Shown: piece by piece, positions 50,440 to 54,237 of the stretch
Position numbering within the stretch: position 1 is the first letter of the stretch
Layout: every line of letters starts with the position of its first letter
Assembly (NCBI GenBank): GCA_030426665.1
Contig: JAUHYD010000010.1
Location: 1-64,000, forward strand
Origin: Bacteroidia bacterium
GTDB taxonomy: Bacteria; Bacteroidota; Bacteroidia; Chitinophagales; Chitinophagaceae
Length of the DNA: 64,000 bases
Direction of reading: 5' to 3'
The notes under the pieces: generated by a model
The model's input: only the letters and a program-made list of their open reading frames with translations
What the model was told of the DNA's origin: nothing
The model's database searches: none
Position numbers and translations under genes: made by a program

Positions 50440-50447
50440 TAATTTAT
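50440..50447. repeat. 8-bp target-site duplication, left copy (TAATTTAT)
   Basis: Identical to 54230..54237, immediately outside the inverted repeats. Confidence 0.93.
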
Positions 50448-50470
50448 GGTAACTATATAGTTTAGTGTAC
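50448..50470 (+). repeat. Left terminal inverted repeat
   Basis: GGTAACTATATAGTTTAGTGTAC; 22/23 identical to reverse complement of 54207..54229. Confidence 0.95.
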
Positions 50471-50503
50471 TAAGAATAACAATAATACATAACGTTTCCG
50501 CAC

Positions 50504-50528
50504 GCCGCTCACATCGAGCGGCTTTTTT
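50504..50528 (+). terminator. Terminator just inside the left end of the transposon
   Basis: GCCGCTC-ACATC-GAGCGGC followed by TTTTTTT. Confidence 0.85.
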
Positions 50529-50556
50529 TATTCCTTAAACTTCAAAACTTAATAAG

Positions 50557-50973
50557 ATGAAAAACGCAATCTACATTAACAACTACGATAGCTACATTAC
50601 TAATGAAGCATTATCCGTAATATTCAACAACATCAGCATTGACCCACAACACGAGTTTGACAGCGAAGTTAAAGTAACATTATGGCATCTATCCGTAACT
50701 AAGACGGGATATGGACATTGGAAGGTATCAGTTGAACTGGAACTTAACGAGCGCAAACTAACAATCACTCATACCACTACCGACAGCATGAGCATTGACG
50801 ACTACAACAGCGAAGAAGGTGATATAGATGGCGATTGGGATGCAGAAACAGAAACATGGAGCAAAGATGCAGAAGAACGCCGCCCCCGTGGATTTGGCTC
50901 ATTATTGAGCCAGTGTATTACCAATAATGAAGAGGAAATAATCAACTTCGTATTAGAAGCCGATGAAGAGTAA
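50557..50973 (+). CDS. Transposon passenger protein, acidic, unknown function
   Basis: 138 aa ORF with upstream purine-rich stretch, followed by its own terminator; no family recognised. Confidence 0.75.
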   Translation: MKNAIYINNYDSYITNEALSVIFNNISIDPQHEFDSEVKVTLWHLSVTKTGYGHWKVSVELELNERKLTITHTTTDSMSIDDYNSEEGDIDGDWDAETETWSKDAEERRPRGFGSLLSQCITNNEEEIINFVLEADEE

Positions 50974-50977
50974 TTAC

Positions 50978-51003
50978 CCGCCTGTAACGGCAGGCGGTTT
51001 TTA
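50978..51003 (+). terminator. Terminator after passenger gene
   Basis: CCGCCTG-TAACGG-CAGGCGG-TTTTT. Confidence 0.85.
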
Positions 51004-51046
51004 TCCTTAATTCGCTTTATCTTCATTTTCTAAATGCAAATTATAC

Positions 51047-52081
51047 ATGAAGGAAATATTTGCAGTACGCAACTTCAATACTTTCTTTGAAATGGTATCG
51101 GCACTACCTGACGATGCCGCCTGCCGACAGTACCTTGAACAAATATTGTGGACTAATGGCACTCCAACTTGCCCCGATTGCAAAAGCAACGAACACTATA
51201 AGCTATCATCCAAAGGTGAATTCAAAGGACAATACAAATGCAAAGAATGTAAGAAACGCTACACCGTAGCAATCGGAACAATCTTTGAAGGCTCACACAT
51301 CGGGTACAAAAAGTGGTTTGTCGCTATCTACTTATTTCAAGCACACAAAAAAGGTATCAGTTCTTTACAGTTATCCCGTGATTTAGGACTAACACAAAAA
51401 ACGTGTTGGTTCATGCTACATCGAATACGAAAAGTAATGGGCGTTACTGATGATGAAGTACAATTGGACGGCACAGTGCAACTCGATGAAACCTTTGTAG
51501 GCGGCAAGAACAAAAACAGGCATTGGGATAAGAAAGTACCACAATCACAAGGCAGGGCGCACATTGACAAAACGCCAGTTTTAGGCATATTGCAGCAAGC
51601 AGAGAAAGAAGTAATCGAGCGACCGCACAAAGTAATCCCAGGCAAAATTGTAAAGGAAACAATCTACCTCAAAAATGCAGTAGTTAAATGTGCAGTTGTA
51701 CCCGACACCAAAGGGGATACACTAAAGCCCATCATTAATAAACACGTTAAAGACGGCAGCATTATTGTGTCGGATGAATGGCAAGCCTATCAAGGCTTGA
51801 ACGCTAAATATGACCATCGGACAATTGACCATCGAGCCAAACAATACGTTGACCAAGCAGGAAATACAACCAATGCCGTAGAAGGTTTTTGGACATGGTT
51901 AAAGCGTAGCAACATGGGCGTTTATCACGTTTTGAGCCGCAAGCATTTACAAGCATATGCCAACGAAAACGCCTTTAGATACAACAATTTCAGGCTTAAA
52001 GACAAGCCGAGATTTGACCTTACTTTACAGCAGTCCAACACGCCACGACTTACTTACAAACAACTCATAGGTAAAAAGTAA
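51047..52081 (+). CDS. IS1595 family (ISXO2-like) transposase
   Basis: N-terminal zinc ribbon CPDCKSN...YKCKECKKRYTVAIGTIFEGSHIGYKKWF; catalytic core QLDETFVGGKNKNRH...VSDEWQAYQGL...TNAVEGFWTWLKRSNMGVYHVLS. Confidence 0.95.
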   Translation: MKEIFAVRNFNTFFEMVSALPDDAACRQYLEQILWTNGTPTCPDCKSNEHYKLSSKGEFKGQYKCKECKKRYTVAIGTIFEGSHIGYKKWFVAIYLFQAHKKGISSLQLSRDLGLTQKTCWFMLHRIRKVMGVTDDEVQLDGTVQLDETFVGGKNKNRHWDKKVPQSQGRAHIDKTPVLGILQQAEKEVIERPHKVIPGKIVKETIYLKNAVVKCAVVPDTKGDTLKPIINKHVKDGSIIVSDEWQAYQGLNAKYDHRTIDHRAKQYVDQAGNTTNAVEGFWTWLKRSNMGVYHVLSRKHLQAYANENAFRYNNFRLKDKPRFDLTLQQSNTPRLTYKQLIGKK

Positions 52082-52174
52082 ACACACAACACAGCAAAGC
52101 ATTCACAGCCACTACTCAAACACGGGTAGGGGCTTAACTATTTTTTCTATTTCTTAACCAAAAAACAATTCAAA

Positions 52175-52528
52175 ATGAAAAAACAATTCAATCCGGGAAT
52201 TGCTGACGTAATCCCACCAGTACACCAATTCCTAAAGCCTATTCTGAACGTAGAAAATGTAAATAAAGCCTACGCACATTTAGTACCCTTTCCGGTTACT
52301 AAATGTGCTGAAATAGTGCTGCAGGATACAAGGGAGTTCTATCGTAAATGGCGGGAAAAAGTTTGCAAAACCTCAGACATTAAAATACAAACAGAATGGG
52401 CGCAAAAATTCAACACCCTGCTACAATCAATCAACTGCACAGAAATGACCGTATCACAATGGACACAACACTTTCGTTATTGGATACACTATGAAATGAA
52501 TGATACACCAATTTCATCGGTGCATTAA
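52175..52528 (+). CDS. Transposon passenger protein, unknown function
   Basis: 117 aa ORF inside the element, no family recognised. Confidence 0.65.
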   Translation: MKKQFNPGIADVIPPVHQFLKPILNVENVNKAYAHLVPFPVTKCAEIVLQDTREFYRKWREKVCKTSDIKIQTEWAQKFNTLLQSINCTEMTVSQWTQHFRYWIHYEMNDTPISSVH

Positions 52529-52530
52529 AA

Positions 52531-52713
52531 CTACGAATATTCTTTATTGAGCATTTTGATTATTTCGTCTTGCTCGTAATCCTCATCCAAACCCGATCCT
52601 CGTGTATGTTGATTATTATTACCGCTTATTTGATATGCTCGTATCTCAACAAGCATATACAATATGGCATCCAATTTCTTATCAGACGGAATAGTTAGTT
52701 TCTCAACTGGCAT
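52531..52713 (-). CDS. Small acidic passenger ORF, unknown function
   Basis: 60 aa from internal Met (MPVEKLTIPSDKKLDAILYMLVEIRAYQISG...); plausible but short. Confidence 0.45.
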   Translation of the reverse strand: MPVEKLTIPSDKKLDAILYMLVEIRAYQISGNNNQHTRGSGLDEDYEQDEIIKMLNKEYS

Positions 52714-52845
52714 AATATAAAGTTTGCTACAATATACACACATTATAGATGCGATACAACTTGTATCTCGACAAAAATCTATATCTATCTACCTACCTAT
52801 TACATACTTTTATTCAACCATCACAAGGTTCGCCAAAACAAAAAA

Positions 52846-52874
52846 AAGCCCCGCAATCACACTTTGCGGGGCTT
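52846..52874 (-). terminator. Terminator for passenger lipoprotein gene
   Basis: AAGCCCCGCAA-TCACACT-TTGCGGGGCTT with A-run on + strand. Confidence 0.85.
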
Positions 52875-52888
52875 CCCTTTACGCTTTA

Positions 52889-53710
52889 TCAGTAGCTATA
52901 AATAGCTGTATCTCGGACATTATGATATACATCGTAGCGCATACGCTTTGTAAGCCGTCCAGCAGTATCAACCATGTTTGTAAACACTGTACGAGTAGTA
53001 AGATTTGGTTGAACCTTTACAACAGAATCAACAAGGTTAGCATTTACATACAATGGCAAGTTCTCAACAAAATCCCACTGATACAATGCAGCAGGCGTAA
53101 ACACTAACATCTGATAGTTACGGATAGATGTGGCAAAGTTATTAGCCACACTTCCGCTGTAATACTTGTAAACGGAAACAGTATCATATCCAACACTGGC
53201 AGCATTATAATGCACATGCCCAATGTGACTGATATTTGAACCTGAATAGCTGAAGTAAAAGAAATCAGGATGTGCTGGTACAGCATCGCTTGTTATCCCT
53301 ATTCGATAAATGTTGCTGCCGCTATACTCAATGTTGTACCTTATCACGCTATCTGCATACGTTGGATCATCATAACGAGCCAGTCGGGCAGTATCACACA
53401 AACCCGAACCATTGTACTTCCATAGGTAATCTGCATACTTTGAACCCGAAATCAACCAAGCACCTTTCACTATCTGACTACCCGAACAAGTGAAATTTAT
53501 CACACCAAATGATGGGTTACTCGGTATAATTGAAGTAGGATTACCACTCGCATAACTGATGTTCCATGTGGCATTCGTAGATGATGGGAACCTATAAGTT
53601 ACAGACTTCACACCGGAACTACCGGTAGGCGTAGGCGTAACTGATGGTGTGGGTGTACATGAACCGGCGAGCAACGCTCCAGCCAGTAATACTAAAACTG
53701 TTTGTCTCAT
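52889..53710 (-). CDS. Passenger lipoprotein, unknown function
   Basis: MRQTVLVLLAGALLAGSCTPTPSVTPTPTGSSG lipobox plus Pro/Thr linker; 273 aa. Confidence 0.8.
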   Translation of the reverse strand: MRQTVLVLLAGALLAGSCTPTPSVTPTPTGSSGVKSVTYRFPSSTNATWNISYASGNPTSIIPSNPSFGVINFTCSGSQIVKGAWLISGSKYADYLWKYNGSGLCDTARLARYDDPTYADSVIRYNIEYSGSNIYRIGITSDAVPAHPDFFYFSYSGSNISHIGHVHYNAASVGYDTVSVYKYYSGSVANNFATSIRNYQMLVFTPAALYQWDFVENLPLYVNANLVDSVVKVQPNLTTRTVFTNMVDTAGRLTKRMRYDVYHNVRDTAIYSY

Positions 53711-53727
53711 TTTTGGCGTATTTAGTG

Positions 53728-53850
53728 ATGAACAAAAAAAATAGCGTAACTGATCTCAATATCGCCATCACAAGGCTCGCCAAAGCCCTTTCTACGCAAT
53801 ATGATACAGCTACGCCATACTTAGCGTACTACATCCATACCGCTGCGTAA
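53728..53850 (+). CDS. Possible small passenger ORF
   Basis: Internal Met of ORF 53644..53850: MNKKNSVTDLNIAITRLAKALSTQYDTATPYLAYYIHTAA (40 aa); short, low certainty. Confidence 0.35.
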   Translation: MNKKNSVTDLNIAITRLAKALSTQYDTATPYLAYYIHTAA

Positions 53851-54011
53851 AAAGTCTGAATTTTGGCGATTCTGTGACAGCAACTAATATGTTATAATAC
53901 TAACAAACTATAATACCTATATATTTACACTCATTCCTTAATCTTGCTTTTTAACGATTTTACTTTGCAAAATAAAACAAACTGCTTTAACTTTACTAAA
54001 CTTTTTACCAC

Positions 54012-54161
54012 ATGAAATCTAAAACAAACAAACAAAAAAAAGGGCTGACAGATGCTGAACTGATTGCCAAATACGGCAACCTAAAAGCACCTTTCAAAAA
54101 AACCATCACGAAAATTATCAACACTAAAGTCCAACCAACTTTAGTAAAAGCAGCTCAGTAA
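54012..54161 (+). CDS. Small basic passenger ORF near right end (49 aa)
   Basis: Read directly from sequence: MKSKTNKQKKGLTDAELIAKYGNLKAPFKKTITKIINTKVQPTLVKAAQ-stop; not in the supplied ORF list (short). Confidence 0.45.
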   Translation: MKSKTNKQKKGLTDAELIAKYGNLKAPFKKTITKIINTKVQPTLVKAAQ

Positions 54162-54206
54162 TTCAGCAACAAAACTCCGCTGATTATCATATCTTAATTC
54201 TTATCG

Positions 54207-54229
54207 GTACATTAAACTATATAGTTACC
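54207..54229 (-). repeat. Right terminal inverted repeat
   Basis: Reverse complement GGTAACTATATAGTTTAATGTAC. Confidence 0.95.
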
Positions 54230-54237
54230 TAATTTAT
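54230..54237. repeat. 8-bp target-site duplication, right copy (TAATTTAT)
   Basis: Matches 50440..50447. Confidence 0.93.

What the first reader, a model, noticed from the sequence alone, without database searches (positions are those of the whole stretch)
50440..54237. Complete passenger-carrying IS1595-type transposon with intact ends and perfect 8-bp TSD
Seen directly: 23-bp inverted ends GGTAACTATATAGTTTA[G/A]TGTAC (50448-50470 and 54207-54229) flanked by identical TAATTTAT. The transposase is a full-length ORF. Only about 1.1 kb of the 3.8 kb is needed for transposition; the rest carries 3-6 uncharacterised genes on both strands, with their own terminators. From established knowledge, IS1595/ISXO2 elements have a DDE transposase, about 8-bp TSDs and some members carry passenger genes. 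The identical TSD and intact ends suggest relatively recent insertion. The cargo set is the best candidate here for an undescribed mobile module.
Basis: partly seen in the sequence, partly recalled or inferred. Interest (0 to 1): 0.82.

Follow-up and report, generated by a model that had tools for sequence, protein, structure and literature searches.

The report
Transposon cargo behind an RNA switch

Summary
In detail: 50448-54229 is a complete 3,782-bp IS1595-family cargo transposon (23-bp inverted ends, identical 8-bp target duplications TAATTTAT, intact transposase). It is the only copy in its genome. A sister element in a MAG labelled Taibaiella sp. (Chitinophagaceae) has the same ends and frame genes at an unrelated site, its own duplication AAAATGAA, and different cargo. 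Passenger-carrying IS1595 elements are a known kind. It matches no Rfam family, yet occurs in over 100 copies, nearly all in this bacterial family. About 45% lie near an IS1595 or IS1 transposase, 32 of them inside elements with complete ends and duplications. It precedes about 67 unrelated protein families, mostly secreted or lipoproteins. Each leader holds two covarying three-strand sets: an apical stem competing with a terminator, and a hairpin arm pairing either with its partner or with a copy of that partner just before the start codon. Both were confirmed on 59 held-out copies. Best reading: a portable attenuator gating cargo expression. Its signal is unknown, nothing was tested experimentally, and half the copies are not near a transposase.

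The parts
50440..50447 (.). left target-site duplication TAATTTAT
50448..50470 (+). left terminal inverted repeat
   Evidence: unique in the genome
50557..50973 (+). orfA, 138 aa, conserved frame gene of unknown function
   Evidence: 67% identical in G002, Ka 0.23, Ks 2.1
51047..52081 (+). IS1595-family transposase, 344 aa
   Evidence: Pfam DDE_Tnp_IS1595 E 2.4e-40 and Zn_ribbon_IS1595; NCBIfam transpos_IS1595 197 bits; 88% identical in G002
52175..52528 (+). orfC, 117 aa, fast-evolving, weak DUF7833 similarity below cutoff
52531..52743 (-). orfD, 70 aa (conserved from MPVEKL onward)
   Evidence: 63% identical in G002
52818..52837 (-). b', extra copy of the leader's 3' arm, past the lipoprotein's terminator
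   Evidence: 19/20 match to 53784-53765
52889..53710 (-). cargo: orphan 273-aa lipoprotein; signal peptide conserved, mature part replaced in sister elements
   Evidence: no homologues
53731..53921 (-). structured leader (whole covariance-model match)
   Evidence: 152 bits with R1, 134 bits with R2
53861..53881 (-). strand a: 5' arm GCTGTCACAG-AATCGCCAAAA
53824..53831 (-). strand A: TAGTACGC, 5' side of apical stem
53807..53816 (-). strand B: GGCGTAGCTG, pairs with A or with C
53765..53784 (-). strand b: TTTGGCGA..TTGTGATGG, pairs with a or with c
53734..53752 (-). strand C: CAGTTACGC followed by TATTTTTTTT, predicted terminator half
53712..53730 (-). strand c: CATCACTAAATACGCCAAA, partial copy of a ending at the start codon
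54012..54161 (+). 49-aa conserved ORF near the right end
   Evidence: 82% identical in G002, Ka 0.10, Ks 1.1
54207..54229 (-). right terminal inverted repeat
54230..54237 (.). right target-site duplication TAATTTAT

Best explanation
50448-54229 is an intact IS1595-family transporter transposon moved by its own DDE transposase. Its cargo lipoprotein gene is controlled in cis by a portable leader RNA. As the leader is made, strands a/b and A/B form a long nested hairpin that leaves the terminator half C and the start-codon region c free: gene ON. When the hairpin is opened by an unknown signal, B pairs with C to make an intrinsic terminator, and b pairs with c to cover the start region: gene OFF. 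The same leader is reused before unrelated, mostly secreted proteins in many IS1595 and IS1 cargo transposons and in stand-alone loci of this bacterial family. Shown: the transposon anatomy, the conserved leader, both competing pairings by covariation, and the association with transposons. Inferred: that the pairings act in RNA, the ON/OFF polarity, the existence of a trigger, and any benefit to the host.
For: Ends, duplications, transposase. Sister element with other cargo at another site. Nested fold: 94.7% of cells paired, 24 of 26 pairs changed on both sides in 59 held-out copies. B-C, never used in model building: 95.5% paired, 8 of 10 pairs changed on both sides, 0/500 shuffles. b-c: own -14.0 against swapped -8.1 kcal/mol, 0/5000 permutations, negative control null. 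Strand order a-A-B-b-C-c cannot come from one duplication. Start codon usually lies 15-30 nt past the end of the leader match, leaving little room for another promoter. 47 of 104 copies near an IS1595 or IS1 transposase, 32 inside complete elements.
Against: No expression data. About half the copies are not near a transposase. Some 40% of held-out copies lack a run of 7 pairs between b and c. Simple folding favours the nested state by about 10 kcal/mol, so a trigger must be assumed. Two copies (L124, L179) have no start codon close behind.
Confidence: 0.62

Rival explanations
1. The leader is simply a host regulatory RNA of this family that transposons have repeatedly picked up along with host genes; it has no special link to mobile cargo.
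For: Half the copies are outside detectable transposons. Response-regulator and other cytosolic genes also carry it.
Against: Association with IS1595 and IS1 elements is far above chance: 47/104 copies, against well under 1% expected from the transposase density (my estimate). The leader stays while the cargo changes in sister elements.
Confidence: 0.25
2. The leader makes a terminated small RNA whose exposed arm b acts in trans on start regions of this and other genes, rather than mainly in cis.
For: T-run after the B-C stem. b is complementary to start regions, and an extra arm copy b' lies past the gene.
Against: b matches its own gene's start region far better than those of other copies, and the start codon lies too close behind the T-run for a separate promoter, which argues for cis action.
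Confidence: 0.1
3. The hairpin is a DNA-level recombination site (attC-like) through which cargo genes are swapped between transposons, not a regulatory RNA.
For: Long imperfect palindrome beside exchangeable genes; extra arm copy beyond the window's cargo gene.
Against: Only the window's subfamily has the far copy. No recombinase gene in the element. A terminator half and a start-codon-matched strand are not expected of such a site.
Confidence: 0.06
4. Leader-peptide attenuation: a ribosome translating a short ORF in the apical stem decides the fold.
For: Many copies have an ATG just before the apical stem (60 of 101), often ending in strand B.
Against: The ORF is absent in 41 of 101 copies and its length varies from 1 to 101 codons.
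Confidence: 0.06

Closest known systems
IS1595 family, transporter IS with passenger genes (Siguier, Gagnevin and Chandler 2009, cited in PMC3129680)
   Same: DDE transposase with zinc ribbon, inverted ends, 8-bp duplications, passenger genes unrelated to transposition
   Different: Cargo gene stands behind a conserved structured leader shared with other elements; a conserved 49-aa ORF lies near the right end
IS1 family elements with cargo (L116, L118)
   Same: 8-bp duplications, cargo genes, same leader before a lipoprotein gene
   Different: Different transposase family and different ends (GGTAGTGTC...)
Transcription attenuators and riboswitches acting by terminator/antiterminator choice (general knowledge)
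   Same: Mutually exclusive apical stem and T-run terminator ahead of a gene
   Different: No Rfam match, no known ligand, an additional arm that can mask the start region, and no single gene class downstream
Integron attC cassettes (general knowledge)
   Same: Imperfect palindrome next to exchangeable genes
   Different: No integrase, no consistent second flanking site, T-run terminator and start-codon complementarity

Membership tests
IS1595 family | IS1595/ISXO2 DDE transposase domain | tested here: met
   Pfam PF12762 full length E 2.4e-40, PF12760; NCBIfam NF033547 197 bits against cutoff 75
IS1595 family | Terminal inverted repeats and 8-bp target duplication | tested here: met
IS1595 family | Transposition demonstrated | not testable with these tools
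   Only indirect: sister at another site with its own duplication; no empty site found
Transporter IS (tIS) | Passenger genes unrelated to transposition inside the ends | tested here: met
   Lipoprotein cargo, replaced in sister elements
Cis-acting attenuator RNA | Two mutually exclusive conserved pairings, one a terminator | tested here: met
Cis-acting attenuator RNA | Leader transcribed and terminating in response to a signal | not testable with these tools
   No expression data available
Known Rfam RNA family | Match at the curated threshold | tested here: not met
   No match on the leader even at E up to 1
Integron cassette (attC) | Repeated site at both cassette ends and an integron integrase | tested here: not met
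   No second site at most leaders; no recombinase among the element's ORFs

The most novel reading that the evidence does not exclude
An undescribed riboregulator family, nearly confined to one Bacteroidota family (Chitinophagaceae), combines a transcription-terminator switch and a start-codon-masking switch in one leader. It has become a standard control element of cargo in two transposase families (IS1595 and IS1), so that unrelated surface proteins are mobilised under one shared signal.
Probability: 0.5. Interest if true: 0.82.

Novelty: new variant of a known kind. Interest (0 to 1): 0.64.

Why it matters
If the leader works as inferred, transposon cargo genes in these bacteria arrive with a ready-made RNA switch, so newly acquired surface proteins can stay silent until a shared signal appears. 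It offers an uncatalogued attenuator with over 100 natural variants in which to look for the trigger, and a marker for finding passenger-carrying IS1595 and IS1 elements.

Tried and rejected
Empty site in relatives: the right flank has no orthologous stretch in 60 relatives and the left intergenic part is not conserved; the G002 insertion site could not be placed in the window's genome either. Leader as a guard against outside transcription near the transposon end: positions vary, only 9 of 32 within 500 bp of the upstream end. Leader peptide: not conserved. Flanking-repeat cassette: only the window's subfamily has the extra arm copy. Known RNA family: none. Identity of the lipoprotein by homology: no relative; structure prediction not attempted for lack of an alignment. 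Searches for papers on IS1595 passenger genes, Chitinophagaceae riboswitches or leader-RNA cargo gave nothing describing this leader; subscription papers were not searchable.

Full report
OBSERVATION. Every sequence statement in the finding checks out. The two ends are at the stated coordinates, are the only such sites in the window and in the whole 4.62-Mb genome, and are flanked by identical TAATTTAT. A scan requiring inverted ends plus an 8-bp duplication recovers the element as its single hit between 46 and 58 kb. The transposase is a complete IS1595 DDE protein.

MOBILITY. A same-genus genome (G002; its contig matches JAHBTQ010000003.1, 'MAG: Taibaiella sp. isolate ACE_BAC17', so Chitinophagaceae by NCBI taxonomy) holds a 3,701-bp sister with the same 23-bp ends, its own duplication AAAATGAA, and flanks without similarity to the window's. 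The transposases are 88% identical (Ka 0.07, Ks 1.28); orfA and the 49-aa ORF are also under purifying selection. No empty site could be shown. Relatives hold many further IS1595 cargo elements of 2.4-6.7 kb with 8-bp duplications, so this is a member of a known kind, the transporter IS (term and reference as cited in PMC3129680).

CARGO. Between conserved blocks, the lipoprotein gene of the window is replaced in G002 by a 98-aa lipoprotein plus a 141-aa membrane protein, and in G034 by a 91-aa lipoprotein plus a 61-aa membrane protein; the signal peptide and about 200 bp upstream stay. The window's lipoprotein has no relative among 5.8 billion proteins.

THE LEADER. That conserved upstream stretch is a ~190-nt structured element (53921-53731, minus strand). 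blastn and then covariance models found it in 27 of 200 relatives and in 46 of 399 genomes of the family, but in only 5 of 399 genomes drawn from the phylum: the window's own, one other family member and three weak hits outside the family. No Rfam family matches. Its nested fold covaries strongly: 95.8% of cells paired in the first 45 copies, and 94.7% in 59 held-out copies with 24 of 26 pairs changed on both sides. These alignments are fitted to the model, so the shuffle and slide controls in those calls matter most.

TWO COMPETING SETS. Reading the copies next to their start codons showed strands in the order a-A-B-b-C-c-ATG. A pairs with B in the apical stem, but B also matches C, which is followed by a T-run: a terminator. 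a pairs with b, but b also matches c, a copy of a that sits just before the start codon. Neither B-C nor b-c was used in building the models. On the held-out set B-C is 95.5% paired with two-sided changes in 8 of 10 pairs; 0/500 shuffles reach it, and sliding by one column drops it to about a third. b-c is stronger for own partners than for swapped ones (-14.0 against -8.1 kcal/mol, 0/5000), in copies with and without a transposase nearby, and a negative-control region shows no effect. Related sequences can inflate such tests, so the within-group results and the held-out set are the safer evidence. The order of C and c is the reverse of a and A, so one duplication cannot explain them. In the window c is CATCACTAAATACGCCAAA, matching b in two blocks of 6 and 7 bases. 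Some 40% of copies lack a clear b-c match, so the terminator may be the general switch and start masking a common addition.

WHERE THE LEADER LIVES. In the first set 12 copies are inside complete IS1595 or IS1 elements and 9 more lie near such a transposase, of 45. In the held-out set 26 of 59 have an IS1595 transposase in the fetched stretch of about 6 kb either side, and 20 are inside elements with complete ends and duplications; none of the 33 copies without a transposase gave an element call. From the transposases listed, a random 12-kb stretch would hold one in well under 1% of cases (my estimate). The 95 downstream proteins fall into about 67 clusters; 79 have a lipobox or hydrophobic N-terminus by a crude test; domains include EGF-like, collagen-like, fibronectin type III, LuxR-type and LytTR regulators, one AIPR protein and one helicase/restriction protein.

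MECHANISM. Most likely the leader is a cis-acting attenuator: nested hairpin = ON, terminator plus masked start = OFF. The nested state is favoured in the window by about 10 kcal/mol over an enforced terminator (pseudoknots ignored), so an unknown trigger is needed. Leader-peptide control is unlikely, a recombination site is unlikely, and a trans-acting small RNA cannot be excluded. All of this is inference from sequence; no expression data exist here.

VERDICT. Observation confirmed; interpretation supported as a known kind of transposon; the new part is the shared RNA leader in front of exchangeable cargo.

Noticed in passing
window 52818-52837 (-): Fourth strand b' (TTTGGCGAACCTTGTGATGG), a near copy of the leader's 3' arm, just past the lipoprotein's terminator and before orfD; also present in the G002 and G034 elements, where it follows the local arm sequence. 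Not seen beside other leaders.
   Followed up: partly
window about 55289-55394: Dispersed repeat of roughly 80-100 bp with many copies across genomes of the genus, in the right flank of the transposon.
   Followed up: no
G000:C19:83780-83963 (L272): Weak second leader match (40.6 bits) in the window's own genome, before a 264-aa ORF, without a transposase nearby.
   Followed up: no
L116:7424-11208 and L118:3323-8585: IS1-family transposons of 3.8 and 5.3 kb with perfect 24-bp ends, 8-bp duplications, several cargo genes and the same leader: IS1 elements carrying cargo.
   Followed up: partly
L120:6811-8946 and L217:6260-8650: Leaders followed by long cytosolic proteins (712 and 797 aa); the cargo set includes one AIPR and one ResIII/helicase hit, which may be phage-defence genes.
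   Followed up: no
L078/L126 downstream of the leader: Four small lipoprotein genes in tandem behind one leader.
   Followed up: no
window 54012-54161: 49-aa basic ORF near the right end, conserved under purifying selection in sister elements and apparently in shorter IS1595 elements (L070, L073); possibly an accessory transposition protein.
   Followed up: partly
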